Assembly: GCF_031844685.1 (NCBI RefSeq)
Contig: NZ_CP134605.1
Span: 558,001-622,000 of the forward strand
From: Streptomyces sp. ITFR-21
GTDB taxonomy: Bacteria > Actinomycetota > Actinomycetes > Streptomycetales > Streptomycetaceae
Direction: 5' to 3'
DNA: 64,000 nt
Under the pieces are notes generated by a model, which saw only the letters and a program-made list of their open reading frames with translations, searched no databases and was not told where the DNA came from. A program made the translations under genes and the position numbers. Shown in pieces: positions 39,179 through 54,428 of this stretch; the stretch's first letter is position 1; each line of letters opens with the position of its first letter.

Positions 39179-40669
39179 ATGTCTGACCCCCGTATGCCCC
39201 GAAGCCGCGTGCTCATCGGCGCGGCTGCCGCCCTGGGCACGCTCGCCCTGGGCGCCGCCGGTATCGCCGCCGGCAGCGCGCAGGCGGCCCCGGCCGCTCC
39301 GGCCGCCGCCACGACGCACCGCGTGCTCTTCGACAACACCAAGGCCGAGACGGCCGGAAACGCCGACTGGATCATCAGCACCAGCCAGCCCGACCCGCTC
39401 GGGCAGGACTCCAGCCCGAACGCGGAGACCGACTGGACCGGCGCCCTGTCCTCCTGGGGCGTGGCGCTGCAGAAGGCCGGCGGCTACCAGCTCAACACCC
39501 TGCCGTCGGGCAAGACCGTCACCTACGGCGCCACCGGCGCGCAGGACCTGAGCAACTTCGACACCTTCGTGCTGACCGAGCCCAACGTGAAGCTCAGCAG
39601 CGCGGAGAAGACCGCCGTTATGAAGTTCGTGCAGAACGGCGGCGGCCTGTTCCTGATCTCCGACCACAACAACAGCGACCGGAACAACGACGGCTGCGAC
39701 TCGCCGTGCGTCATCAACGACCTGCTGACCAACAACGGGGTGGACAACACCGACCCGTTCGGCTTCTCCGTCGACCTGCTCGACATCAGCACCGACAACC
39801 CCCGGGCGATCAGCAGCAGTTCGGACCCGGTGCTGCACGGCCCGTTCGGCAACGTCACCGGCAGCATCCTGCGGGACGGCACCACCTTCACCCTCAAGCC
39901 GAACGACAACCCGAACGTCAAGGGCCTGCTGTACCACGCCGGCGGCTCCGGCAACTCCGGCGCCTTCTTCGTCACCAGCACCTTCGGCAACGGCCGGGTG
40001 GCGATCTGGGGTGACAGCTCGCCGGTCGACGACGGCACCGGCCAGTCCGGCAACACCCTCTACGACGGCTGGAACGACCCGGCGGGGACCGACGCGGCGC
40101 TCGCCCTGAACGCCACCGCGTGGCTGGCCGGCAGCGGCAGCGGCGGCACCACCGGCGGGACCACCACGGGCGGTTCGACGACGGGCGGCGGCGGTGGCAG
40201 CTGCACCGACCAACAACTGCTGGCCAACCCCGGCTTCGAGTCCGGCAACACGTCCTGGTCCGCCTCCGGCGGCGTGATCGGCAACGCCACCAAGGAAGCG
40301 GCGCGCAGCGGTTCCTACAAGGCGTGGCTGGACGGCTACGGCACCGCCACCACCGACACCCTCTCGCAGTCCGTCGCGATCCCGTCCGGCTGCTCGGCGA
40401 ACCTCAGCTTCTGGCTGCACATCGACACCGCCGAGACCGGCTCGACCGCCTACGACACCCTCAAGGCACAGGTGCTGAACTCCTCGGGCACCGTGCTCAG
40501 CACCCTGGCCACCTACTCCAACGTCAACGCCGCCTCCGGCTACAGCCAGCGCAGCTTCGACCTGAGCGGCTACGCCGGGCAGACGGTGACCATCAAGTTC
40601 ACCGGCGTCGAGGGCTCCAAGCTGCAAACGTCGTTCGTGATCGACGACACGGCGCTCGACGTCAGCTGA
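39179..40669 (+). CDS. Secreted protein: GATase-like (DUF4350-like) domain plus C-terminal carbohydrate-binding-like domain
   Basis: The 496-residue protein has a signal peptide (ending around GSAQAA, residue 36). Its globular domain (about 46-320) reads [37 protein letters not shown] and [16 protein letters not shown]. This resembles the glutamine-amidotransferase-like fold seen in DUF4350/ThuA-type proteins, but I see no clear catalytic triad. A Gly/Thr linker leads to a jelly-roll-like domain (about 345-496) that starts [17 protein letters not shown], as in many galactose-binding-like modules. The substrate is unknown; an extracellular polysaccharide-related role is likely. GGAGG precedes the ATG. 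The stop overlaps the convergent regulator gene by 8 nt. Confidence 0.65.
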
Positions 40670-42833
40670 CCGCGGGTCCTTCCCGCCGGCCCGGACCGGC
40701 CTCAGCCGGTCCGGGCACGGGCGTGCCGGCCGCCGGGCCGAACTCGCACCACACCGCCTTGCCGTCGCCGCGCGGCTCGACACCCCAGCTCACCGCCATC
40801 GCGTCAATCATCAGCAGACCGCGGCCCGAGGTGGCCGCCTCGCCCGGAGAGCGGCGGCGGGGCCACACGCTGGAGCGGTCCTGCACCGACAGCCGCACCC
40901 GGCGGACCGGCTCGGGCAGCACCTCCAAAGTGAGCACGGCGCCGCCCTCGGTGTGCAGCAGGACGTTCACCAGCAGCTCGCCCGCGGCGAGTTCGACGTC
41001 GTCGGCGAGTTCGGACAGCCGCCAGTCGGTGAGCGCCTGCCGCAGCGCGGCGCGCGCCTCCGCCAGTCCCTCGGGGTCGGCCTGGTGCACGTACTGGTGG
41101 ATCCGCGGGGCGCATTCGGTGCCCGGGTCGGGGGTCCGGCGCAGGATCAGCAGAGCCACGTCGTCGTCCGAACCCCAGCGCCGCCACAGGGTATCCGCGA
41201 TGTCGTCGGCCAACTCCTCGGCGCGGCGTGGTCCGTGGTGCACCGCGTCGGCGAGGGCCGCCATGCCGACGCCGATGTCCGTACCGCGCTCCTCGACCAG
41301 GCCGTCGGTGCAGAACACCAGGGTCTCGCCCGGGACCAGGTCGAGCCGGGTCTCGGGGAACTCCTGGAGGTCGAACGTGGTGGCGAGTCCCAGCGGCAGG
41401 CCGCCGCGCACGTTGGGCCAGCCGGTGCGGCCGTCGATGTGCCGGATCAGCGGCCCCAGGTGCCCGGCGCGGGCCGCCCGTATGGTGCCGTTGGTCAGGT
41501 CGAGTTCGGCGTAGCCGCAGGTGGCGAAGCGCTCGGTGTCGAGTTCGGCGAGGAAGCGGGAGGCGCGGGCCAGCACCGTGGACGGTGGGTGGCCCTCGGC
41601 CGCGTAGGCCCGCAGCGCGATCCGCAGCTGGCCCATGACGGCGGCGGCGTGCGTGTCGTGCCCCTGGACGTCGCCGACCACCAGGCCGACCCGGTTCTGC
41701 GGCAGCGCCACCACGTCGTACCAGTCGCCGCCGACCTCCCGGCCGCTCCAGGCGGCGTGGTAGCGGACCGCGATCTCGACGCTGTCGAACCGCGGGATGT
41801 GCCGGGGCAGCATCGTCGACTGGAGCCCGGTGGCGAACTCCCGCTCCCGGTCGAAGAGGATGGCCCGTTGCAGCGACTGGGCGAGGATGCCGGCCAGCGC
41901 GCCGACCAGCTCCCGCTCCGCGTGGCCGAAGTCCGCGCGGTCCCGGTAGAACAGCGCGAGGCCGCCGATGGAGCGGGCCTGGGCGATCAGCGGCACGAAG
42001 GCGGCCGACGCCGTACCGATCGGCTGCTGGTAGGGGCCCAGCAGCGGGAAGCGCTCGGCGAGCCCGGGGTAGTCGCGGGTGAAGTACGGCCGCTGGGTCC
42101 GCACCGCCTCGGCGAGCGGCAGATGCTCGGCCAGCCGGCGCGGCGGGAGGGCGTCCACGGCGATCGTCGGCGAGCCGCTGGACGCGACGAACCTCAGGGC
42201 GGTCCCCTCGACCAGTGCCAGGACCAGGCCGTCGGCGCCGAAGCGCTCCAGGCCGCCGGCCCCGGTGAGCACCGCCGTGACGTCCTCCACGGTGACCGCG
42301 TGCGACAGCGCCTCGGTGGTGCGCCGGACGACGGCGGGCAGGTTGCGCTGTCCGGCACCGCGGTCCTCGGCGGGCTCGGGCGCCTCGGCCAGCTCCTCCG
42401 TGGCGTCCCTGACGAAGCCGACCACCCGGTAGGCGTTGCCGCCGGAGTCCCGCAGGATGGTGCCCTGGGTGTGCGTCCACTGCTTGACGCCGTCCCGCCG
42501 GGTCACCTGGAAGTAGCCGCCGTAGCTGGGCCGGCCGGACTGCAGGGCCTCCCGCAGGGCGGCGTCCAGCCGGACGCCCTCCTCCGGGGTGACGCGCAGC
42601 ACCAGCGACTCGGGGCGCCGGTCGAACTCCTCGGGGCGCAGGTCGAAGACGTCAAGCCCGGCCCGGTCCAGGTCGAAGGTGCCGGCGTCCAGATCCCAGT
42701 CGAAGCTGCCCAGACCGCTGAGCGCCAGCCGCTCCCCCGGCCCGAGCCGGGACGGCGCGAACCGAGGGCGTGACGCGGAACCCGCCACGCGCGGGTCGTA
42801 CGGGCCGGCCCCGGGCCGGCGGTCAGCTGCCAT
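40662..42833 (-). CDS. PAS-GAF-SpoIIE phosphatase with anti-sigma-type ATPase domain
   Basis: This 723-residue signalling protein combines an N-terminal PAS domain (about 40-145; [20 protein letters not shown]) with a GAF domain (165-320). A SpoIIE/PP2C Ser/Thr phosphatase follows (345-560; [32 protein letters not shown]), then an HATPase_c domain (580-700; [32 protein letters not shown]). This architecture is abundant in Streptomyces and acts in partner-switching cascades that control alternative sigma factors. The ligand is unknown. The start has GGAGCAGG upstream. No anti-sigma antagonist gene lies next to it. Confidence 0.93.
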
Positions 42834-44169: not shown

Positions 44170-44340
44170 CCAGGCCGCCGATGGCCATTCCATCACCTCG
44201 GCACCTCCCCGAATCGGTCACAGAACCTGCGCGGATTCCCGCACGATGGTCCCCGGAATCGCGCCCCCCATGGGCCGCGACAGCGGAGGGCGGTACGTCG
44301 TTTCCGGCGTTGGGCCGCCTTCCGGGGGAGGAATGACTTG

Positions 44341-46518
44341 ATGGGCAGAGCTTTACGTGCTGCCGCCGCCGGAGCGGCGGCAGCACTGATGTCCCTGGGC
44401 CTGGCCCCGGCGGTGGCGAACGCCGCCACCACCCCGCGGATCGACCTGCGGGTCCTGGTGGTGGACGACGGCGGCCCGGCCACCGCGGCCATCGCCGCGG
44501 AACTCGGCAGCGCGGGCACCCCGTACACCACCGTGGACCTCGGCGACGCCGGCCGGCCGGCGATCACCGCGGACTTTCTGAGCGACACGGTCTCGGGCCG
44601 GCCGCGGGCCAGGTTCCAGTCGGTGGTGCTGCCGAACGACAACCCGTTCGGCGCGGGCTCCGCCGAGATGGCCGCCCTCGCGGCGTACGAGACGACCTTC
44701 GGCATCCGGCAGGTCGACGCGTACACCTACGCGCAGCCGTCCGTCGGTCTCGACTACGCCCAGAACGGCGGCTACACCGGCCCGCTGGACGGCGACACCG
44801 GCCAGGTCACCGCCCAGGGCACCGCGGGCCCGTTCGGCTACCTCGGCGGCCCGGTGCCGTTCGAGGACAACGCGGCGGACCAGGCGGAGAGTTACGGCTA
44901 CCTCGCGACGCCGCTGGCCCAGCAGGTGGCCGGCGCATCCTTCACCACCCTGGTGGACGCGCCCGTTCCCGGTACCGACCGGCGCGGGGTGCTCGTCGGC
45001 CAGTACGCGCACGACGGCCGCAGCGAACTGGTGCTGACCTTCGTCTACAACCAGTACCAGGAGCAGTTCCGGCTGCTGGCCCGCGGCATCGTGGAGTGGA
45101 TGACCCAGGGCATCCATCTGGGCGCCGACCGCAACTACTTCGAGGTGCAGGTCGACGACGTCTTCCTCTCCGACGACCGGTGGGACGCCGGGCTGAACTG
45201 CACTCCGGGGGACGTGGACTGCCCGCCGGGCACCGGTGACGACACCGACCCGATCCGGATGACGCCGGCCGACGCGGCGTACGCCGAGCAGTGGTCGCGG
45301 GCACACGGCTTCACCTTCGACTTCGTGTTCAACGGCGGTGGCAGCGAGGACTGGAAGACCGACCACGAGACCACCGACGACCCGCTGGCGGACCGGCTGC
45401 TCGCCGACAAGAGCACGTACCGCTGGGTGAACCACACCTATCTGCACCCCTTCGTGGGCTGTGTCCAGGACGTCACCGTGGTGCCGTGGCGCTGCACGAC
45501 CGACGCGAGCGGGCACGTCCAGTGGGTGAGCAAGTCCGACATCGTCTCCACCGTGCAGGACAACCGGACCTGGGCGGCGCAGCACGGACTGTCGCTGAAC
45601 GACCAGGAGTTGGTGACCGGCGAGCACTCCGGACTCACGTCCCTGCCGCAGCAGCCGGACGACAACCCGAACCTGTCGCCGGCGCTCACCCAGCTCGGGG
45701 TGAAGTACCTGGCCAGTGACGCCTCCAGGGAGCCGGACCAGCGGACGGCCGGCCCGGCGGTCACCGTGCCGCGCCACCCGATGAACGTCTTCTACAACGC
45801 GGGCAGCGCGGCCGAGGAGACCGACGAGTACAACTGGATCTACACCGACGCCGTACAGGGCGGCAGCGGGGTGTGCGCGACGTCCGGCACCTCCACCTGC
45901 CTGAACGCCCCGCTGGACCCGGCGACCGGCTACCAGTCGTACATCGTGCCGCTGGAGGCCCGGATCGACCTCGGGCACGTGCTCGGCAACGACCCGCGGC
46001 CGCACTTCCTGCACCAGTCGAACCTGTCGGAGGACCGGATCGCGTACCCGGTGCTGGAGCGGATCCTCGCCGACTACGCGGCGCTGTTCGCCGCCGACAC
46101 CCCCCTGGTGAACCTGCGGACCGCCGACATCGGCACCGAACTCCGGCGCCGGGCGGCCTGGGACACCGCCGTCCGGGCCGGCACGGCCACCGGCTACCGG
46201 ATCGGCGACACCGTGACGATCAGCGCGCCGGCCGGAACGCAGGTCAGCGCGACGGTGCCGACCGGCACCCGGCAGGCCCAACTGCTCGGCTCCACCCCCT
46301 TCGGCGACTCCTACGCGGGCGCGGTGAGCGGCTGGACCGTGCCGGGACTGCTGCAGAGCGCGGTGTCGCTGACGCTGCCGTCGGGGACGCCGTCGGCCCT
46401 GCTGCACCTGGACGTGTCGCTCGGCCCGATCACCGTGCGCCTCGCCGTCGGCCGGCTGCCGGTGCCCAGCGGGGCCGCCACCCCCGTCCCGGCCGGCCCC
46501 GGCGACAGCCGGAGCTGA
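44341..46518 (+). CDS. Secreted NodB-like polysaccharide deacetylase (Agd3/CE18-like)
   Basis: This 725-residue secreted protein (signal peptide 1-29, ending VANAA) has an N-terminal all-beta region with a flavodoxin-like look (LRVLVVDDGGPATAA). The deacetylase core carries Asp272-Asp273 in EVQVDDVFLSDDRW and a HxxxH in NHTYLHPF (His365, His369). The last matches the metal-binding H-[ST]-x-x-H-P motif of NodB-type deacetylases. The long N-terminal domain and divergent VDD motif resemble Agd3, the fungal galactosaminogalactan deacetylase. It probably removes N-acetyl groups from a GalNAc-containing polymer outside the cell. GGAGGAA precedes the ATG at 44341. It opens an eight-gene operon. Confidence 0.75.
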   Translation: MGRALRAAAAGAAAALMSLGLAPAVANAATTPRIDLRVLVVDDGGPATAAIAAELGSAGTPYTTVDLGDAGRPAITADFLSDTVSGRPRARFQSVVLPNDNPFGAGSAEMAALAAYETTFGIRQVDAYTYAQPSVGLDYAQNGGYTGPLDGDTGQVTAQGTAGPFGYLGGPVPFEDNAADQAESYGYLATPLAQQVAGASFTTLVDAPVPGTDRRGVLVGQYAHDGRSELVLTFVYNQYQEQFRLLARGIVEWMTQGIHLGADRNYFEVQVDDVFLSDDRWDAGLNCTPGDVDCPPGTGDDTDPIRMTPADAAYAEQWSRAHGFTFDFVFNGGGSEDWKTDHETTDDPLADRLLADKSTYRWVNHTYLHPFVGCVQDVTVVPWRCTTDASGHVQWVSKSDIVSTVQDNRTWAAQHGLSLNDQELVTGEHSGLTSLPQQPDDNPNLSPALTQLGVKYLASDASREPDQRTAGPAVTVPRHPMNVFYNAGSAAEETDEYNWIYTDAVQGGSGVCATSGTSTCLNAPLDPATGYQSYIVPLEARIDLGHVLGNDPRPHFLHQSNLSEDRIAYPVLERILADYAALFAADTPLVNLRTADIGTELRRRAAWDTAVRAGTATGYRIGDTVTISAPAGTQVSATVPTGTRQAQLLGSTPFGDSYAGAVSGWTVPGLLQSAVSLTLPSGTPSALLHLDVSLGPITVRLAVGRLPVPSGAATPVPAGPGDSRS

Positions 46519-46618
46519 GTCGCCGGCGGGCGGGGCTCATCCGGCTGCACCGGCCGCCCCGCCCGCCGCAGGCGGCTCCACAACGGCACCTGATACGTCG
46601 AGGGGGGACTCCATTTCC

Positions 46619-48298
46619 ATGCACGCAGTCCTGGGCGGGCCGCCGACGCCTGTCGCGCGGGTCACGATGCTGACCGAAGGAACGTATCCGCACAGTCCCG
46701 GCGGGGTGAGCGTCTGGTGCGACCAGCTCGTCCAGGGCATGCCCGACGTCGACTTCCGGGTACTGGCGGTCACCGGCACCGGCCAAGAACAGCCGGTGTG
46801 GCCGCTGCCGGCGCAGGTGAGCGGAGTGGAGACGGTGGCGCTGTGGGGCGCGGAGCCGGCCGGCCGGGCGCCGCGCGGCCGGGACGCCAGAGAACTGCTC
46901 GCCGCCTGGGAGGGGTTGCTGCTGGCGCTGCTCGCCGAGGAGCCCGGCGAAGACGGGGACGGGGAGGACGGGGACAGGGGCGGCGGGACCACCGAAGCGG
47001 CCCCGGCGGCCGGGGAGGGCGCCGGGTCCGGCGGCGGAACCCGCGACGAGCGGGCCGAGTTCGGCACGCAGCTGTACACGCTGGCCGAATGGGCCGACAG
47101 CGGCGCGCTGTTCGCCGCGCTGCGGACCGAGGAGGCGGTACGGGTACTGGCCCGGCTGTGGCGGCGGCCCGGCACCACGGTCGCGGCGGCGGCGCCCACC
47201 CATCACGACGCGCTGACCGCGACCGACCTGCTGGAACACCTGCTGCGCCCGCTGGGCGCGGCGCCGGCGCCGGCGCCCGGCGGGGTCTCGCACGCGGTCA
47301 GCGGGGGTCTGGCGGCGCTGCCGGGACTGGTCGCCCACCAGCGCCACGGCACCCCGCTGCTGCTCACCGAGCACGGCGTCTACCAGCGCGAACGCTATCT
47401 CGGCTACCGGACGGGACCGTACCGCTGGCCGGTGAAGGCGCTGCTGCTCGGCTTCTTCCGGCTGCTGTCCCGCGAGACGTACCGGACGAGCGCGCTGATC
47501 ACCCCCGGCAACCGCTACAACCGGCGCTGGGAGGAGCACGGCGGGGCCGCGCCGGACCGGATCCGCACCGTCTACAACGGGGTCGACCCGGGGGCGTTCC
47601 CGCCCGCCGGGCCGGAGCCGCTGACCCCGACGCTGACCTGGGCCGGGCGGATCGACCCGATCAAGGACCTGGAGACGCTGATCCGGGCGTTCGCGCTGGT
47701 GCGGGAGGAGATACCCGCGGCGCGGCTGCGGATCTTCGGCGGCACCCCGCGCGGCGGCGAGGCGTACCGCGAGCGGTGCGAGGCGCTGGCCGGGGCGCTC
47801 GGCGCGGGCGAGGCGGTCACCTTCGAGGGGCGGGTGGACGACATCCGCACCGCGTACGCGGCCGGGCAGGTGGTGATGCTCTCCAGTATCAGCGAGGGGT
47901 TCCCGTTCACCCTGATCGAGGCCATGTCGTGCGGGCGCTGCACGGTGTCCACCGACGTGGGCGGGGTACGGGAGGCGGTGGGCGACACCGGCCTGGTCGT
48001 ACCGCCGCGCGATCCGGCGGCGATGGCTCGGGCCGCGCTGGAACTGCTGCGCGACCCCGGCCGGCGGGCAGCGCTCGGCGAGGCCGCCCGGCTGCGGGTG
48101 ATCGAACGGTTCACGCTGCGGCGGACGATCGACGCGTTCCGGGAGATCTACCGGGAGCTCGGGGCGGCGCCGCGCCGCCCCGAACGGGTCGGCGGCGGCC
48201 CGGCCCGGATGCCGCGTGCCTGGCAGCCGGCGCGGTCGGCGGGCGCCGCGCCACAGGCGGCACGGGACGGGTTGTGCGCGGCGAAGGACGGCCGGTGA
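46619..48298 (+). CDS. PelF-like GT4 glycosyltransferase
   Basis: The 559-residue cytoplasmic enzyme resembles PelF, the GT4 synthase of the Pel polysaccharide. Features are the N-terminal LTEGTYPHSPGGVSVWCDQL (PelF-type ligand loop), WAGRIDPIKDLETLIRAF at the second Rossmann domain and the retaining-GT4 E-x7-E motif EGFPFTLIEAMSCG (Glu426, Glu434). An acidic Gly-rich insertion of about 40 residues near 105-145 is unusual. It should polymerise a UDP-hexosamine, by analogy UDP-GalNAc. It follows the deacetylase by 100 nt and overlaps the membrane protein gene by GTGA, so the two are translationally coupled. Confidence 0.85.
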   Translation: MHAVLGGPPTPVARVTMLTEGTYPHSPGGVSVWCDQLVQGMPDVDFRVLAVTGTGQEQPVWPLPAQVSGVETVALWGAEPAGRAPRGRDARELLAAWEGLLLALLAEEPGEDGDGEDGDRGGGTTEAAPAAGEGAGSGGGTRDERAEFGTQLYTLAEWADSGALFAALRTEEAVRVLARLWRRPGTTVAAAAPTHHDALTATDLLEHLLRPLGAAPAPAPGGVSHAVSGGLAALPGLVAHQRHGTPLLLTEHGVYQRERYLGYRTGPYRWPVKALLLGFFRLLSRETYRTSALITPGNRYNRRWEEHGGAAPDRIRTVYNGVDPGAFPPAGPEPLTPTLTWAGRIDPIKDLETLIRAFALVREEIPAARLRIFGGTPRGGEAYRERCEALAGALGAGEAVTFEGRVDDIRTAYAAGQVVMLSSISEGFPFTLIEAMSCGRCTVSTDVGGVREAVGDTGLVVPPRDPAAMARAALELLRDPGRRAALGEAARLRVIERFTLRRTIDAFREIYRELGAAPRRPERVGGGPARMPRAWQPARSAGAAPQAARDGLCAAKDGR

Positions 48299-49950
48299 GC
48301 GGGCCGCTCGCGCTGGTCGCGCCGGGCATCCTGGCGGGCACGGACGGCGGCTCCGGCTCGCTGGCCGGGCTATCGCGCCGGACGGGACCGCTGCGGGACC
48401 GGCCGCGGGACGCCTCGCAGGCCCGGTCGCCGGAGAGTGAACTGACCGCGCTCGCCGAAGGGCTGGCGGAGCAGATCGCCACGGCCGTCCACCCCGACGA
48501 GGTGGCGGCGCTGCTGGAGTCCGAGGGGCTGACCGACGAGCGGATCACCGGCCAACTGGGGCACCGGGACCTGTTCGCGCTGTCCGTCACGCTCTTCGGC
48601 CGGGTGCCCCGCCGCTTCCCCGAGCCGCCGCCGGCCGCCGACCCGTGGCGGCCGGACACCCTCCGGTGTGCCCTGCACGGCCTGACCTTCGCGCTCCCGG
48701 GCATCGCCTACGTCCTCGGCGGCCGGTGGGCCGACGGTCCCGACGGGCCGTTCGGGGTGAGCCGGGCGGTCGCCGCGTGGGGTGCGGCGGCGCTCGTCGG
48801 CTGGGGCTGGAACCAGGCGCTGGCCCACCACGCCCACCTGCTCCTGCTCGCCGGCCGCGAGCGCCAGGCCGCCGGCGCGCTGCTGGCCGGCGCGGCGGCC
48901 GGGGCGCTGCTGTCCACGGCGGCGGCGACGGCGGTGGCGGGCTTCGGTCTCCCCGGCACCCTCCTCTTCGCCACCGGGCAGTCCTGCTACGTGGCCGCCG
49001 CCACGGTCCTGCTGGTCCTCGCCCGGGAGCGCACTCTGCTGACCGTCCTGCTCCCCCTGCCGCTGACCGCCGTCGCCGGCGGCAACGCCCTGCCCCCGGC
49101 CCTGATCACCGCCTCCCTGACCGTGACCGCGGCGGCGGCCATGGCCCTCGCCGCCCACGCGGCCCTGCGAACGGCCTCGCCGCCGGCGCCCGCCGCCCGA
49201 CCCGCGCGGGACCGCCGGGACCGCCGGGACCGCCGGGACCGCCGCCTGTGGACCCTCCTCCGGCGCAGGACCCAGCACGCCGGGAGGTCGGCCCGCCCGG
49301 CCCCGGCGGTACCCGGCACCGGCCGCGGCCGACGCCCCACCCCCCGTACACCGGCCGGCGGGCTCCGCCGCGTTCTGCGGGCCTGCCGGTCGCACGGCGG
49401 GGTGGCGTGGGTCCGCTCGGCGCCGCAGGCGGTCGCGGGGGTGGCGGGCGGGGTGCTGGTGGTCGCGGCGGGGCTGGCCGGGGAGTTCGTGGGGGCACTC
49501 ACCGTGGGGATGGGGGTCGGGGAATGGCTGCTGTTCCGGTTCCGCGGCGGAGCGCTGAGGGCGCTGCGCCGCACCGGGGTCGGAGAGCGGCTGCCGGGCC
49601 GGGTCTGGCGGGTGCTGGGCGGCTGCCTGGCCGGGTACGGGGCCTCGCTCGCGGGGCTCGCCGCGGTGGAGAGCGCCGTGCTGCCGGGCGCGGCGGCCTG
49701 GACCGTACCGCACCTGGCCGTACTGCTGGCCCTGGGCTGCCTGCTGTGGCTGGCGCTGCTCCTCCAGTCGTGCGGCAGGCCGTGGACCGGGGCGCTTCTG
49801 CTCCTGGGCGCGGCCGGCGCCGCCGGCGTCCTGCTCGCGGCCCGCGCCGCCGCCCCCGCGGCGACGATCGGCCTGGTCTGCGGCACCGCCGCGGCCACCG
49901 CGCTGGCCGTCTCGCTGAACCTCACCGCCCGGGTGACCACCCACCGCTGA
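48295..49950 (+). CDS. Polytopic membrane protein paired with the PelF-like synthase
   Basis: The 551-residue protein begins at a GTG overlapping the glycosyltransferase stop. About 110 soluble residues are followed by some 10-12 hydrophobic segments (for example AALVGWGWNQALAHHAHLLL and GVAGGVLVVAAGLAGEFVGA). A basic Arg/Asp repeat (RDRRDRRDRRDRR) lies near residue 305-318. Its position fits a polymer export or assembly partner, comparable in role to PelG or to the membrane half of fungal Gt4c/Gtb3. I cannot show sequence relationship to either. The RDR repeat comes from a tandem CCGCGGGAC-like DNA repeat. Confidence 0.65.
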   Translation: MSGPLALVAPGILAGTDGGSGSLAGLSRRTGPLRDRPRDASQARSPESELTALAEGLAEQIATAVHPDEVAALLESEGLTDERITGQLGHRDLFALSVTLFGRVPRRFPEPPPAADPWRPDTLRCALHGLTFALPGIAYVLGGRWADGPDGPFGVSRAVAAWGAAALVGWGWNQALAHHAHLLLLAGRERQAAGALLAGAAAGALLSTAAATAVAGFGLPGTLLFATGQSCYVAAATVLLVLARERTLLTVLLPLPLTAVAGGNALPPALITASLTVTAAAAMALAAHAALRTASPPAPAARPARDRRDRRDRRDRRLWTLLRRRTQHAGRSARPAPAVPGTGRGRRPTPRTPAGGLRRVLRACRSHGGVAWVRSAPQAVAGVAGGVLVVAAGLAGEFVGALTVGMGVGEWLLFRFRGGALRALRRTGVGERLPGRVWRVLGGCLAGYGASLAGLAAVESAVLPGAAAWTVPHLAVLLALGCLLWLALLLQSCGRPWTGALLLLGAAGAAGVLLAARAAAPAATIGLVCGTAAATALAVSLNLTARVTTHR

Positions 49951-49982
49951 CGACCCGTCAGCCTGCTTCCTAGGAGACCCGC

Positions 49983-50984
49983 TTGTCCAGCACCGCCCCC
50001 GTCGCAGTGACCGGCGCCGAAGGCTTCATCGGCTCGCACCTGGTGGAGGCCCTGGTCGCCGACGGCCACCGGGTGCGCGCCATGGTCCAGTACAACTCCT
50101 TCTCCTCGCACGGCTGGCTGGAGGTGCTGCCGCCCGACGTGCTGGACCACGTCGAGATCGTCCTCGGCGACGTCCGCGACCCCGGCTCGGTACGCGAGGT
50201 GGTGGCCGGCAGCGAGACCGTCTACCACCTGGCCGCGCTGATCGCGATCCCCTACTCCTACCGGGCGCCGCGCAGTTACGTGGACACCAATGTGTCCGGG
50301 ACGCTCAACGTCCTGGAAGCGGTACGGGAGTCGGGCGCCGCCCGCCTGGTGCACACCTCGACCAGCGAGACCTACGGCACCGCGCAGACCGTGCCGATCA
50401 CCGAGGACCACCCGATCGTCACGCAGTCGCCGTACGCGGCCTCCAAGGCAGGCGGCGACCGGCTCGCGGACAGCTACCACGCGAGCTTCGGCACGCCCGT
50501 GGTGACGCTGCGGCCGTTCAACACCTTCGGGCCGCGGCAGTCGATGCGCGCGGTGATCCCCACCGTGATCGGCCAGGTCGCCGCCGGGCAGCGCGAGGTG
50601 ACGCTGGGCGACCTGCGGCCCACCCGGGACTTCACCTTCGTCCGGGACACGGTGGCCGCCTTCCTCGCGGTGGGCACCGCGCCGGCGGCCGACGTGGTCG
50701 GCCGCACCTTCAACGCCGGTACCGGCGGCGAGATCGCGATCGGCGACCTCGTGCTGCTGATCGGCAAGCTGATGGACGCCGACCTCGCGGTCCGCGAGGA
50801 CCCGCAGCGGCTGCGGCCGGCCGGCTCCGAGGTGATGCGGCTGGTCTGCGACGCCTCCCGGCTGCGCGCGGCGACCGGCTGGGCGCCGGCCCACACCTTG
50901 AAGGAAGGGCTCGCGCACACCGTGGAGTTCTTCCGCGACCCGGCCAACCTGGCCCGCTACAAAACCTCTTCCTACAACGTCTGA
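49983..50984 (+). CDS. NAD-dependent nucleotide-sugar epimerase/dehydratase (LegB-like SDR)
   Basis: The 333-residue extended SDR begins at TTG (49983) with AGGAGA just before it. It has the NAD-binding TGAEGFIGSHL, a catalytic Ser/Thr region HTSTSETYGTAQ and the YxxxK in SPYAASKAGGDRLADSY. RPFNTFGPRQSMRAVIP is typical of LegB-like NDP-HexNAc 4,6-dehydratases and close UDP-GlcNAc epimerases. In this operon it should make or modify the activated amino sugar, a place held by Uge3 in fungal galactosaminogalactan synthesis. Whether it epimerises or dehydrates cannot be decided from the sequence. Confidence 0.87.
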   Translation: MSSTAPVAVTGAEGFIGSHLVEALVADGHRVRAMVQYNSFSSHGWLEVLPPDVLDHVEIVLGDVRDPGSVREVVAGSETVYHLAALIAIPYSYRAPRSYVDTNVSGTLNVLEAVRESGAARLVHTSTSETYGTAQTVPITEDHPIVTQSPYAASKAGGDRLADSYHASFGTPVVTLRPFNTFGPRQSMRAVIPTVIGQVAAGQREVTLGDLRPTRDFTFVRDTVAAFLAVGTAPAADVVGRTFNAGTGGEIAIGDLVLLIGKLMDADLAVREDPQRLRPAGSEVMRLVCDASRLRAATGWAPAHTLKEGLAHTVEFFRDPANLARYKTSSYNV

Positions 50985-51067
50985 GGACACCGGGGCGCGC
51001 CTGACCGACCGTCGGCCGCCCGCGTCCGCCCGTTCCGCACACCTTCGGCCTCTTGGGGGAATCCACC

Positions 51068-51781
51068 ATGCACGCAGTCATCCTCGCCGGCGGCAAAGGC
51101 GTCCGGCTCCGGCCGTACACGACCGCGCTTCCCAAACCGCTGGTGCCGATCGGCGACAGCCACGCGATCCTGGAGATCGTGCTGCGGCAGCTCGCGGGCG
51201 CCGGGTTCCGCCGCTGCACCGTCGCGATCGGGCACCTGGGCAACATCATCCGGGCCTACGTCGGCGACGGCACCCAGTGGGGGCTCGACGTCGACTACGT
51301 GACCGAGGAGAGCCCGCTCGGCACGATGGGCCCGCTGCTCACCATGCTCGGCCGGCTCCCCGAGCACTTCCTGGTGATGAACGGCGACATCCTGACCGAC
51401 CTGGACTTCGGCGCGGTACTGGACGGGCACGTCCACTCGCAGGCACCGATGACCATCGCCACCTACCCGCGCACGGTCAGCATCGACTTCGGCGTGCTCA
51501 CCACCGAAGACGGCAAGGTGGTGGCCTTCGCCGAGAAGCCGAGCATGGACTACCGGGTGTCGATGGGTGTCTACGGCCTCACCCGCGACACGCTCGCCGG
51601 GTACCCGGCGGGCCTCCCGCTGGGCTTCGACGAGGTGGTGCTCGACCTGCTGGCGGCGGGCCGGCCGCCGCGCGCCCACGAGTTCGAGGGCTACTGGCTG
51701 GACATCGGCCGCCCCGACGACTACGACCGCGCCAACGCCGAGTTCGGCGACCTGCGCGGCCTGCTCCTCAAGGGGGCGTGA
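51068..51781 (+). CDS. Sugar-1-phosphate nucleotidyltransferase
   Basis: This 237-residue enzyme belongs to the NTP-transferase family that makes NDP-sugars. It shows the nucleotide-binding MHAVILAGGKGVRLRPYT, the Lys of LPKPLVPIG, a metal Asp in VMNGDILTD and the sugar-binding EGYWLDIGRPDDYDRA. It lacks the C-terminal beta-helix found in longer relatives, so it is the short, RmlA/HddC-like form. It probably supplies an activated sugar for the operon's polymer. It ends 6 nt before the next gene. Confidence 0.9.
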   Translation: MHAVILAGGKGVRLRPYTTALPKPLVPIGDSHAILEIVLRQLAGAGFRRCTVAIGHLGNIIRAYVGDGTQWGLDVDYVTEESPLGTMGPLLTMLGRLPEHFLVMNGDILTDLDFGAVLDGHVHSQAPMTIATYPRTVSIDFGVLTTEDGKVVAFAEKPSMDYRVSMGVYGLTRDTLAGYPAGLPLGFDEVVLDLLAAGRPPRAHEFEGYWLDIGRPDDYDRANAEFGDLRGLLLKGA

Positions 51782-51787
51782 CAGCGG

Positions 51788-52795
51788 GTGAGGCGGATCC
51801 TGGTACTGGGCGGCGGCGGCTTCCTCGGCGCGGCGGTCCTGGCCCGGCTGGGCCGGCCGGCAGCCGCTGCCCCCGACGCACGGGCCGCCCCCGGCGGCGG
51901 CCCGCGGGTGCGGCTGCTGCGCGGAGAGCGCTCCCCCGGCTTCGACCTGCTGGCGGACCTCGCCGTCGTACCGGTCGACGTGCTGGCCGGGCGGCTCGCC
52001 GAGCTGTCGCCCGACGTGGTGGTCAACTGCGCCGGGGCGGTGGCGGGCGCGGCGAGCGAGGTGTGCGCGGTCGACGCGCGCGGGCCGGCCGCCCTGGCGG
52101 AGGCGATGGCACTGGCGGTCCCCTCGGCCCGGCTGGTGCACCTGGGGTCGGCGGCGGAGTACGGGCCGGCGGAGGGGAAGGCGCTCTCCGAGAGCGCACC
52201 GGCCCGGCCCACCGGGGTGTACGGCACGGCGAAGCTCGCGGGCACGCTCGCGGTGACCGGTTCCGGGCTCGACTCCGTGGTGCTGCGGGTGTTCAACCCG
52301 GTGGGGGCGGGCGCCCCGGTCACCGGGCTGCCCGGAAGGCTCGCCGCCGCCTTCCGGGACACGCCGCCGCACGGCACCGTGCGGACCGGCAGCCTAACCG
52401 GGTACCGTGACTTCGTGGACGTGCGCGACGTGGCCGAGGCGGTGGCACTGGCCGCCGTCGCGGCCGGCCCCCTCCCCCCGGTGGTCAACATCGGTTCGGG
52501 CCGCGGGGTGCGGGCCCGCACCCTCGCCGAGACGCTCGCGGCCATCGCGGGATTCGGCGGACGTATCGAGGAGTCGGGCCCGGGATCGGCCAACTCAGCC
52601 CCCCTGGACTGGAGCCAGGCCGACATCACACTGGCCGCCCGCGCCCTCGGCTGGCTCCCGGCCCGTACGCTGCGCGACGCGCTCACGTCGCTGTGGCAGG
52701 CCACCGCCACGCCCGCGCCCGCGGGGTCCGCGAGCCGGGTCCCCGGAGGCGGCGGGGGCTCCCGGTCGTCCGCCGCCGCGCGGAACTCCCCGTGA
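51788..52795 (+). CDS. Second NAD-dependent epimerase/dehydratase-like SDR
   Basis: The 335-residue protein starts at a GTG six bases after the previous stop. It has a Gly-rich NAD loop (LVLGGGGFLGAAVLARLG), HLGSAAEYGPAE for the active-site Ser, and VYGTAKLAGTLAV holding the YxxxK pair, followed by GYRDFVDVRDVAEAVALA. It is a divergent member of the nucleotide-sugar SDR group. A C-terminal Gly/Ser-rich tail of about 30 residues is extra. It may work in sequence with the LegB-like enzyme on the same sugar nucleotide. Its stop overlaps the next start (GTGA). Confidence 0.83.
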   Translation: MRRILVLGGGGFLGAAVLARLGRPAAAAPDARAAPGGGPRVRLLRGERSPGFDLLADLAVVPVDVLAGRLAELSPDVVVNCAGAVAGAASEVCAVDARGPAALAEAMALAVPSARLVHLGSAAEYGPAEGKALSESAPARPTGVYGTAKLAGTLAVTGSGLDSVVLRVFNPVGAGAPVTGLPGRLAAAFRDTPPHGTVRTGSLTGYRDFVDVRDVAEAVALAAVAAGPLPPVVNIGSGRGVRARTLAETLAAIAGFGGRIEESGPGSANSAPLDWSQADITLAARALGWLPARTLRDALTSLWQATATPAPAGSASRVPGGGGGSRSSAAARNSP

Positions 52796-53466
52796 GCGGC
52801 GCCGGCGATCCCGCCGGGGGCACGCTGCTGGTGCCGCTCTACGTCCATCCCGCCGTCGACCCGGCGGCGTGGCGGGCGTTGGAGGCGCTCGGCCCGCGGC
52901 TCTACGGTGTCGTGGTGAACGCGGCCGACGGACCCGGCCCCCGGGTGGACGGCGTCATGGCGCAGGCCGCAAGCAGACTGCGCGGGGCCGGGATCCGGCT
53001 GCTCGGGTACGTCGACACCCGCTACGGAAAGCGGCCGCCGGTGGCGGCGCTGCGGGACCTGCGGCGGCACCGGGTCTGGTACGGCGTCGACGGGGTGTTC
53101 TTCGACCAGGTGTCGGCCGGGCCCGAACAGCTGCCGTACTACCGGCGGTTGGGGTGGGCCGCCCGGCGCTGCGGAGCGCGGGCCGTCGTCCTCAACCCGG
53201 GGGTGCACCCCCATCCGGGATACGCGGCCCTCGCCGACGTGCTGGTCACCTTCGAGGGCAGCTGGGAGCGGTACGCCGAGGTCCGGGTGCCGGGGTGGAC
53301 GGCGGGCCTGCGCCCGGCGCGCCTGTGCCACCTGGTGTACGACGTCCCGCCCGGTGAGGGCGTCACGGTGGCCCGTACGGCCGCCCGGCTCGGCGCCGGA
53401 GTGCACTGCGCCGTACCGGACGGGCCGCCCAACCCGTGGCGCCATGTGCCGGGCGGCGCCGCGTGA
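52792..53466 (+). CDS. Spherulin-4/Sph3-like protein (GH135)
   Basis: The 224-residue protein is of the spherulation-specific family 4 type, whose fungal member Sph3 is a GH135 hydrolase needed for galactosaminogalactan synthesis. It shows the barrel start LLVPLYVHPAVDPAAWRALE, then YVDTRYGKRPPVAALRDLRR, GVDGVFFDQVSAGPEQLPYY (Asp105) and VTFEGSW (Glu155). Fungal Sph3 has Asp-Glu at the first site as I recall; here it is Asp105-Gln106, so catalysis may differ. No signal peptide is seen, which suggests a cytoplasmic location unless export is linked to a partner. Both ends overlap neighbouring genes by GTGA. Confidence 0.85.
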   Translation: MSGAGDPAGGTLLVPLYVHPAVDPAAWRALEALGPRLYGVVVNAADGPGPRVDGVMAQAASRLRGAGIRLLGYVDTRYGKRPPVAALRDLRRHRVWYGVDGVFFDQVSAGPEQLPYYRRLGWAARRCGARAVVLNPGVHPHPGYAALADVLVTFEGSWERYAEVRVPGWTAGLRPARLCHLVYDVPPGEGVTVARTAARLGAGVHCAVPDGPPNPWRHVPGGAA

Positions 53467-54428
53467 GCCGCCGCGTGAGCCGCCGCTCGGTCGGGGCGCC
53501 GCTCGCCCCGGCCCGGGCGCTGGCCGTCTGCGGACTGCTGCTGCTCGCGGGCTGCTCTGCCCCCGGCTCCGGTGACAACGCCGGGGCGGGCCCGCCGCCC
53601 GCCCCGGCCACCGCGCCCGGGTCCAACCGCGGCACCGCCTCCGCATCCGCGTCCTCGCCCGTCTCCACGCCCGGCTCCGGGCCCGCCTCCGCCCCCGGCT
53701 CCGCGTCGGCCCCGGTCGCCGCGGCGCCGGCCCGGTGGCAGCCGCGCCCGGGCACGCCCTGGCAGTGGCAGCTCAGCGGCACCGTGGACACCTCGGTCCA
53801 GGTGCCGGTCTACGACATCGACGGCTTCGAGAACGGCGCCGACGTCGTACGGCGGCTGCATGCCGCCGGGCGCAAGGTGATCTGCTATGTCAACGTCGGC
53901 GGGTGGGAGTCCTTCCGGCCGGACGCGAAGGACTTCCCGGCCGCGCTGCTCGGCAAGGGCGACGGCTGGCCGGGTGAGCGCTGGCTGGACATCCGCCGCA
54001 CCGCTGTCCTGCGCCCGCTGCTCGCGGCCCGCTTCGACATGTGCCGGGCCAAGGGCTTCGACGCGGTGGAACCCGACCTCGCCGACGGCTACGCCAACGA
54101 CACGGGCTTCCCGCTGACGGCCGGTCAGCAGCTCGCCTTCAACCGGATGGTCGCGGACCTGGCCCACCGGCGCGGGCTCGCGGTGGGCCTGAAGAACGAC
54201 GTCGACCAGGTCGGGGAGCTGGTCGACGACTTCGACTTCTCGGTGGACGAGCAGTGCGCCGAGTTCGACGAGTGCGACGCGCTGACGCCCTTCGTAGCCG
54301 CCGACAAGGCGGTGTTCCACGTCGAGTACGAGCTGAGGACGGATCAGTTCTGCTTGGACAGCCGGAGGTTGCGGCTCAGCTCGATGCTCAAGCATCTGAG
54401 CCTGGACGCGTGGCGGCGACCCTGCTGA
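53463..54428 (+). CDS. GH114 endo-alpha-1,4-polygalactosaminidase, lipoprotein
   Basis: The 321-residue protein starts at GTG overlapping the previous stop. A lipobox LLLLAGCSAPG marks it as a membrane-anchored lipoprotein. A Ser/Pro/Ala-rich spacer (about 35-90) leads to a GH114 TIM barrel: WQWQLSGTVDTSVQVPVYD, KVICYVNVGGWESFRPDAKD, FDAVEPDLADGYAND with Asp205, and DFSVDEQCAEFDEC with Glu263. These two are the likely catalytic acids, as in Ega3. The enzyme would cut alpha-1,4-linked galactosamine polymer at the cell surface. It closes the eight-gene operon and is the strongest clue to the polymer's nature. Confidence 0.9.
   Translation: MSRRVSRRSVGAPLAPARALAVCGLLLLAGCSAPGSGDNAGAGPPPAPATAPGSNRGTASASASSPVSTPGSGPASAPGSASAPVAAAPARWQPRPGTPWQWQLSGTVDTSVQVPVYDIDGFENGADVVRRLHAAGRKVICYVNVGGWESFRPDAKDFPAALLGKGDGWPGERWLDIRRTAVLRPLLAARFDMCRAKGFDAVEPDLADGYANDTGFPLTAGQQLAFNRMVADLAHRRGLAVGLKNDVDQVGELVDDFDFSVDEQCAEFDECDALTPFVAADKAVFHVEYELRTDQFCLDSRRLRLSSMLKHLSLDAWRRPC

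What the first reader, a model, noticed from the sequence alone, without database searches (positions are those of the whole stretch)
44341..54428. Eight-gene operon resembling a bacterial galactosaminogalactan (GAG)/Pel-type exopolysaccharide system
Seen: eight co-directional genes with tiny gaps or GTGA overlaps encode a secreted NodB-like deacetylase, a PelF-like GT4, a polytopic membrane protein, a LegB-like epimerase/dehydratase, a nucleotidyltransferase, a second SDR, a spherulin-4/Sph3-like protein and a GH114 polygalactosaminidase lipoprotein. Known: the Aspergillus GAG locus consists of Uge3 (epimerase), Sph3 (GH135), Gt4c/Gtb3 (GT4 membrane synthase), Ega3 (GH114) and Agd3 (CE18 deacetylase). 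Pel uses PelF plus a PelA hydrolase/deacetylase on alpha-1,4 GalNAc. Inference: this actinomycete makes a partly deacetylated alpha-1,4-galactosamine-type adhesive polymer with a fungal-like gene set. The added nucleotidyltransferase and second SDR hint at an extra or modified sugar.
Basis: partly seen in the sequence, partly recalled or inferred. Interest (0 to 1): 0.92.

Follow-up and report, generated by a model that had tools for sequence, protein, structure and literature searches.

The report
Bacterial sticky-coat operon, altered sugar supply
Eight adjacent genes in a soil actinomycete match the parts list that moulds use to make a sticky amino-sugar coat, but the sugar-supply genes and the predicted location of one cutting enzyme differ, so the bacterium likely makes a variant of that coat.

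Summary
In detail: eight co-directional genes at 44338-54428. The 44341 product has the Agd3 (CE18/CBM87) fold and its catalytic residues. The others are PelF, a MOP-fold membrane protein, a LegB-like dehydratase, a nucleotidyltransferase, a second SDR, a Spherulin4/GH135 protein and a GH114 lipoprotein. Such bacterial agd3 operons, some with spherulin-4 in Actinobacteria, were described in 2020 (PMC7229062, section 13), so the idea is not new. The polymer was not measured.

The parts
44338..46518 (+). gene 1: Agd3-like (CE18 + CBM87 + beta domain) secreted N-deacetylase, 726 aa, ATG at 44341, N-terminal signal-like segment
46619..48298 (+). gene 2: PelF-type GT4 glycosyltransferase, 559 aa
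   Evidence: NF038011 PelF 172.7 bits, cut-off 100; DUF3492 and GT4 domains
48295..49950 (+). gene 3: polytopic membrane protein, MOP (MATE/Wzx/MurJ) fold, PelG-like in role (inferred); about 100 aa soluble N-terminal helical part
49983..50984 (+). gene 4: LegB-like NDP-sugar 4,6-dehydratase (TSE motif)
   Evidence: TIGR04180 447.5 bits (cut-off 475), galE 135 bits; motif controls
51053..51781 (+). gene 5: sugar-1-phosphate nucleotidyltransferase, guanylyltransferase-like
   Evidence: PF00483; best NCBIfam and PDB matches are mannose-1-phosphate guanylyltransferases, well below the NCBIfam cut-off
51788..52795 (+). gene 6: second SDR, best solved relative a GDP-4-keto-6-deoxyhexose reductase
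   Evidence: 2pk3 E 1.5e-10, 4-epimerases close behind; PF01370
52792..53466 (+). gene 7: Spherulin4/GH135-like protein without recognisable signal peptide, predicted cytoplasmic
   Evidence: PF12138 1.4e-29; Sph3 5c5g 8.6e-14; N-terminal check
53436..54428 (+). gene 8: GH114 endo-alpha-1,4-polygalactosaminidase-like lipoprotein
   Evidence: PF03537 1.1e-83; Ega3 6oj1 5e-54; lipobox LLAGC read directly

Best explanation
This is an eight-gene operon encoding an Agd3-fold protein, a PelF homologue, a MOP-fold membrane protein, GH135-like and GH114-like proteins and a three-gene sugar-nucleotide cassette, and it likely makes, exports and trims a partly deacetylated alpha-1,4-linked hexosamine surface polymer that contains a 6-deoxy-hexosamine. 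Proposed order of events: gene 5 would activate a (N-acetyl)hexosamine-1-phosphate (perhaps as the GDP sugar), gene 4 would remove water across C4/C6, and gene 6 would reduce the 4-keto group, giving a nucleotide 6-deoxy-HexNAc such as FucNAc (6-deoxy-GalNAc) or QuiNAc. PelF (gene 2) would polymerise it in the cytoplasm, alone or with UDP-GalNAc from a housekeeping GalE, and the MOP protein (gene 3) would carry the chain out. The Sph3-like gene 7, predicted to stay in the cytoplasm, would cut or release the still fully acetylated chain. Outside, gene 1 would remove acetyl groups to make the polymer cationic and sticky, and the lipoprotein gene 8 would cut the deacetylated stretches. Shown: gene content, families, predicted folds, conserved catalytic residues, synteny, and the existence of forms with and without the cassette. 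Inferred: every reaction, every substrate and the polymer itself.
Against: The polymer was not seen. Gene 4 falls just short of the LegB cut-off (447.5 of 475). Gene 6's solved-structure match is weak and nearly tied with 4-epimerases, and its best NCBIfam match is galE, far below cut-off, so gene 6 could be an epimerase. L080 has gene 5 and gene 6 homologues without a LegB-class protein, so these two need not work on a 4-keto-6-deoxy sugar. Only one glycosyltransferase is in the operon. GH114 and GH135 are known for GalN/GalNAc polymers, and no call tests whether they accept a 6-deoxy sugar. Gene 7 has Gln (or Arg in 14 of 28 type A copies) where Sph3 has a second Glu, so its activity is uncertain; and the hydropathy test is crude, since gene 1 leaders start at 1.25 on the same scale. 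Three genomes have a cassette-bearing operon without a full Agd3 gene. GH114 is missing next to several operons (11 of 80 named loci have genes 1, 2, 4-7 but no gene 8 in the stretch). Pfam's Agd3 models miss P0001 itself, and its model is of middling confidence (pLDDT 68.3).
Confidence: 0.5

Rival explanations
1. The operon makes an ordinary Pel/GAG-type alpha-1,4-GalNAc/GalN polymer; the cassette merely boosts or modifies UDP-GalNAc supply (gene 4 or 6 acting as a 4-epimerase).
For: Hydrolase families GH114 and GH135 and the CE18 enzyme are known on GalNAc/GalN polymers (PMC7229062, passages; PMC12054363, passages); one distant relative of the operon carries a true GalE; gene 6 has weak galE similarity.
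Against: Gene 4 has the dehydratase Glu and a LegB-class score; the own genome already has two GalE above cut-off; type B operons do without any such genes in the stretches fetched.
Confidence: 0.3
2. The cassette makes a neutral 6-deoxyhexose (GDP-D-rhamnose/6-deoxytalose type, as ManC-GMD-RMD do) that branches or caps a GalNAc backbone.
For: Gene 5 resembles mannose-1-phosphate guanylyltransferase, gene 4 matches PF16363 GDP_Man_Dehyd, gene 6's best solved relative is an RMD-type reductase.
Against: Gene 4 scores 80 bits to gmd against 447.5 to LegB; no second glycosyltransferase in the operon to add a branch.
Confidence: 0.15
3. The operon is a degradation or predation locus that attacks fungal GAG instead of making a polymer.
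For: GH114, GH135 and CE18 are the families of the fungal GAG enzymes; a soil lifestyle would bring contact with fungi (inference).
Against: PelF, a MOP-fold exporter-type protein and a nucleotide-sugar cassette are biosynthetic; the GH135-like protein has no recognisable export signal.
Confidence: 0.04

Closest known systems
Bacterial agd3-containing operons (Bamford et al. 2020, PMC7229062, section 13)
   Same: Agd3 homologue, cytoplasmic glycosyltransferase, multi-spanning membrane protein, GH114, and spherulin-4 in some Actinobacteria
   Different: Its main text does not use the words dehydratase or nucleotidyl- (0 occurrences; its Fig. 8c and supplements could not be seen, so the cassette may be drawn there); the passages read do not speak of two operon forms or of a spherulin without signal peptide
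Aspergillus galactosaminogalactan cluster (Uge3, Sph3, Gtb3, Ega3, Agd3)
   Same: CE18 deacetylase, GH135-like and GH114 enzymes, GT4 plus membrane part
   Different: LegB-like dehydratase cassette instead of a 4-epimerase; GT and membrane part are two proteins; GH135-like protein lacks a recognisable export signal
Gram-positive Pel operon pelDEADAFG (PMC7112168)
   Same: PelF and a MOP-fold membrane partner, a deacetylase
C. jejuni LegB step of legionaminic acid synthesis
   Same: Gene 4 family; guanylyltransferase-like partner (the C. jejuni partner is recalled)
   Different: No aminotransferase or NeuB-like gene in the operon; reductase-like SDR instead

Membership tests
CE18 (Agd3) | Agd3 three-domain fold (CBM87, CE, C-terminal beta) | tested here: met
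   [not shown]
CE18 (Agd3) | Catalytic motifs: DD, HxxxH, Arg, His | tested here: met
   Conserved in 50 of 50 sequences, Arg in 49 of 50; motif names from PMC7229062 passages; which Arg and His correspond to CM3 and CM4 is my assignment
CE18 (Agd3) | Match to Pfam Agd3_CE / CBM87_Agd3 | tested here: inconclusive
   None for P0001; 3 of 18 relatives each; above cut-off for the G168 copy
CE18 (Agd3) | Metal-dependent deacetylation of GalNAc polymer | not testable with these tools
   needs enzyme assay
Aspergillus-type GAG cluster | Uge3-type UDP-hexose 4-epimerase in the cluster | tested here: not met
   gene 4 LegB 447.5 vs galE 135 bits; gene 6 galE 51 bits; cut-off 262; the own GalE lie far away
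Aspergillus-type GAG cluster | Exported Sph3 | tested here: not met
   no signal-like or membrane segment before the domain in gene 7, by hydropathy and reading
Aspergillus-type GAG cluster | GH114 Ega3 homologue | tested here: met
Pel system | PelF glycosyltransferase | tested here: met
   NF038011 172.7 bits, cut-off 100
Pel system | PelG (sequence model) | tested here: not met
   no PF16933 match in the whole genome or for P0003; fold is MOP-like
Pel system | PelD, PelE, PelA in the operon | tested here: not met
   no such match among the eight genes; the rest of the genome was not searched for them
TIGR04180 LegB | score above curated cut-off | tested here: not met
   447.5 of 475 bits: close relative, not filed as LegB
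TIGR04180 LegB | dehydratase acid/base motif with Glu | tested here: met
   TSE in 30 of 30; GalE controls lack the Glu, the own dTDP-glucose dehydratase has it
GH135 (Spherulin4/Sph3) | Pfam Spherulin4 match and catalytic Asp/Glu pair | tested here: met
   45 of 45; the residue after the Asp, Glu in Sph3, is Gln or Arg in 44 of 45
GH114 | Pfam match above cut-off and catalytic Asp/Glu pair | tested here: met
   280.5 of 27 bits; 38 of 38 sequences

The most novel reading that the evidence does not exclude
Streptomycetes make two sticky cationic polymers with one shared machine: a plain Pel/GAG-like galactosamine polymer (five-gene form) and a 6-deoxy version, poly-alpha-1,4-N-acetylfucosamine/fucosamine (eight-gene form). 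In both, chain trimming is split by the membrane: an acetyl-specific GH135-like enzyme inside and a GH114 enzyme specific for deacetylated chain outside.
Probability: 0.25. Interest if true: 0.8.

Novelty: new variant of a known kind. Interest (0 to 1): 0.5.

Why it matters
Streptomycete hyphae clump through surface polymers; one paper found here names PNAG made by MatAB (PMC5972031, search listing only). A widespread CE18/PelF operon would be another adhesive polymer, for which my searches found no functional study in streptomycetes. If the 6-deoxy reading is right, it would be a new member of the cationic hexosamine polymers, and the natural pairs of operons with and without the cassette in one genome give a clean way to test how sugar supply sets polymer chemistry.

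Tried and rejected
Rejected: Uge3-type epimerase for gene 4. Rejected: a formal Pel operon (no PelD/PelE/PelA among the eight; PelG model does not match). Rejected: membership in the fungal GAG cluster as such, because the epimerase and the exported Sph3 are missing. Sequence searches of P0001 and of alignment A1 against solved structures found nothing; the fold comparison did. Promoter and terminator scans (0 and 0 found) and Rfam (0 matches) led nowhere. Of 10 flanking frames scanned, 6 had a Pfam match (aldehyde dehydrogenase, a weak ABC_transp_aux, SpoIIE, Ada zinc domain, GFO/IDH/MocA oxidoreductase, xylose isomerase-like barrel) and none points to the polymer. The Ega3 and Sph3 papers are not held, so no test was made of whether the hydrolases tolerate a 6-deoxy sugar. 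Trees: the 14 cassette-free loci form one clade in the gene 2 tree (support 0.65) but not in the gene 1 or joint tree, and a cassette-bearing locus (L047) lies outside both forms, so whether the cassette was lost or gained is open. One search lists 14 of 34 gene 1 matches with one stop inside; in the 13 I checked it is the natural end of a shorter protein. Literature searches: 25, 28, 29, 88, 89, 91, 96, 118, 119; in their listings and the passages read I saw no text on the cassette or on two forms, but figures, supplements and most subscription papers are not held.

Limits of the counts: one search scored only 2 candidates per genome, so 26 of 394 is a lower bound; one search scored 5 per genome; one search kept the best 80 of 553 relatives, so its 70 of 80 with the cassette is biased towards the window's form; named loci overlap in part with unnamed ones. 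Of the 10 named loci without the cassette, 5 are cut off within 5 kb after gene 2, 2 have no gene 2, and 3 lack it with room to spare. 'No sugar gene in type B' rests on tblastn with genes 4-6 over stretches of about 9 to 17 kb. In one search, 2 of 44 operon copies of gene 7 were not scored (no motif found), and 4 of the 42 scored had no upstream room. I examined 10 of the 33 gene-4 relatives at 49-57% identity. Sph3 residue numbers: the passage read prints Asp196/Glu222; my Asp166, Glu167, Glu222 mapping is recalled and fits the spacing of 56 in the alignment. 'FucNAc = 6-deoxy-GalNAc' and the dehydratase motif rules are textbook knowledge, not from a call.
Full report
What is there. Eight co-directional genes run from 44338 to 54428, spaced by 100, -4, 32, 68, 6, -4 and -31 bases, all with third-position GC of 0.92-0.96. 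The window is part of a 7.36 Mb genome in 4 contigs. A same-genus genome (G025) has a contig of exactly the length of an Actinacidiphila alni contig (421153), so the genus is probably Actinacidiphila (inference).

The sugar cassette. Gene 4 scores 447.5 bits to LegB (cut-off 475), 168 to dTDP-glucose dehydratase and 135 to galE. Its TSETYG motif carries the dehydratase glutamate. In alignments with it a GalE of the same genome (above cut-off) reads SSTAATYG and a GalE from a related operon SSSAAVYG, while the own dTDP-glucose 4,6-dehydratase (431.7 bits, cut-off 365.1) reads STDEVYG; a second own GalE, aligned with gene 6, reads SSSASIYA. TSE is invariant in 30 of 30 cassette-bearing sequences. 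Gene 5 is nearest to guanylyltransferases, and gene 6 to a GDP-4-keto-6-deoxyhexose reductase (2pk3, 1.5e-10), with 4-epimerases close behind. LegB of C. jejuni dehydrates GDP-GlcNAc (PMC7439481, passages). The simplest reading is a three-step route to a nucleotide 6-deoxy-HexNAc. This is inference.

Two operon forms. In the first 20 fetched loci, 15 carry genes 1 and 2 plus the cassette, 2 carry genes 1 and 2 without it, and 3 had only hydrolase matches. In the next 33, 14 carry the cassette (13 with genes 1 and 2), 15 have genes 1 and 2 without it (3 of these are cut off or have under 5 kb after gene 2), and 4 have fewer core genes. Among 80 named loci, 70 carry genes 4-6 and 55 have the identical eight-gene order; the records bear the names Streptomyces, Kitasatospora, Actinacidiphila and Streptantibioticus. 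Six genomes (G130, G216, G246, G255, G374, G390) have both forms with genes 1 and 2. Three more (G174, G342, G366) have the cassette-bearing form without a full gene 1, next to a cassette-free form elsewhere. The 18 hits of at least 80% identity to gene 4 that one search found in 394 genomes, the own copy included, all lie in cassette-bearing operons. One search also found 33 relatives at 49-57%; of the 10 whose surroundings I examined, none had genes 1, 7 or 8, 4 had a gene 5-like neighbour within about 100 bases and 2 more had one further off. In distant actinobacteria the core goes with other sugar genes: a GalE above cut-off (L076), a nucleotidyltransferase fused to the second SDR plus a LegB-like protein (L078, where no gene 2 was found), or nucleotidyltransferase, SDR, NDP-sugar dehydrogenase and another SDR (L080).

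Where the hydrolases work. Gene 1 copies have signal-like segments and gene 8 a lipobox. In contrast, gene 7 copies begin at the domain itself: in the 42 of 44 scored, no upstream segment exceeded mean hydropathy 1.26 (measured partly over non-coding frame; 4 of the 42 had no upstream room), against 2.06 in a non-operon Spherulin4 (L050). The scale is crude: gene 1 leaders range from 1.25 to 2.34 on it. Since Sph3 is described as specific for fully acetylated polymer and Ega3 for deacetylated galactosamine (PMC12054363 passages), a cytoplasmic GH135-like enzyme acting on the nascent acetylated chain and an outer GH114 acting after gene 1 would fit. This is inference. A caution: the residue after the catalytic Asp, Glu in Sph3, is Gln or Arg in 44 of 45 copies.

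What is known. PMC7229062 (abstract, passages and the whole of section 13 read) already reports Agd3 homologues in 45 bacterial species, 30 of 35 tree species with agd3 in or near such operons, GH114 as a highly consistent companion and spherulin-4 in some Actinobacteria operons, and it adds support to an earlier proposal that the cluster passed from bacteria to fungi. PMC7112168 (passages) describes Gram-positive Pel operons, with which this one shares only PelF by sequence model. Pel itself is mainly a GalN-GalNAc repeat (PMC9135694, abstract).

Verdict. A real, widespread, conserved operon; a new variant of a known kind. Points I did not find in print are the LegB-type cassette, the paired operon forms, the MOP fold of gene 3 and the GH135-like protein without recognisable signal (searches named under tried and rejected). 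The chemistry is untested.

Noticed in passing
[not shown]
   Followed up: no
window 48295-48600 (gene 3 N-terminus): About 100 residues of conserved soluble helices precede the membrane part (invariant H66, E69, E75, G78 in 36 sequences); function unknown.
   Followed up: no
L078 13805-15550 (minus): Nucleotidyltransferase and second SDR are fused into one 581 aa protein.
   Followed up: yes
L192, L193, L194: Cassette-bearing operons without a full Agd3 gene; L194 keeps a short remnant.
   Followed up: partly
genomes: A second class of GH114 genes scoring about 150-190 bits occurs in many relatives; where they lie was not examined.
   Followed up: no
L031, L041: High-scoring GH114 genes (380 and 331 bits to gene 8) without the other seven genes in the fetched stretch.
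   Followed up: no
L189, L190, L191: More distant genomes of the same phylum hold Agd3-like and PelF-like genes together at 27-29% identity; L190 and L191 also hold a Spherulin4-like gene.
   Followed up: partly
L050: A separate Spherulin4 with a hydrophobic leader and a distant GH114 lie about 11 kb apart without the rest of the operon.
   Followed up: no
window 40662-42833 (minus): PAS-GAF-SpoIIE-HATPase regulator upstream of the operon; any link is unknown.
   Followed up: no
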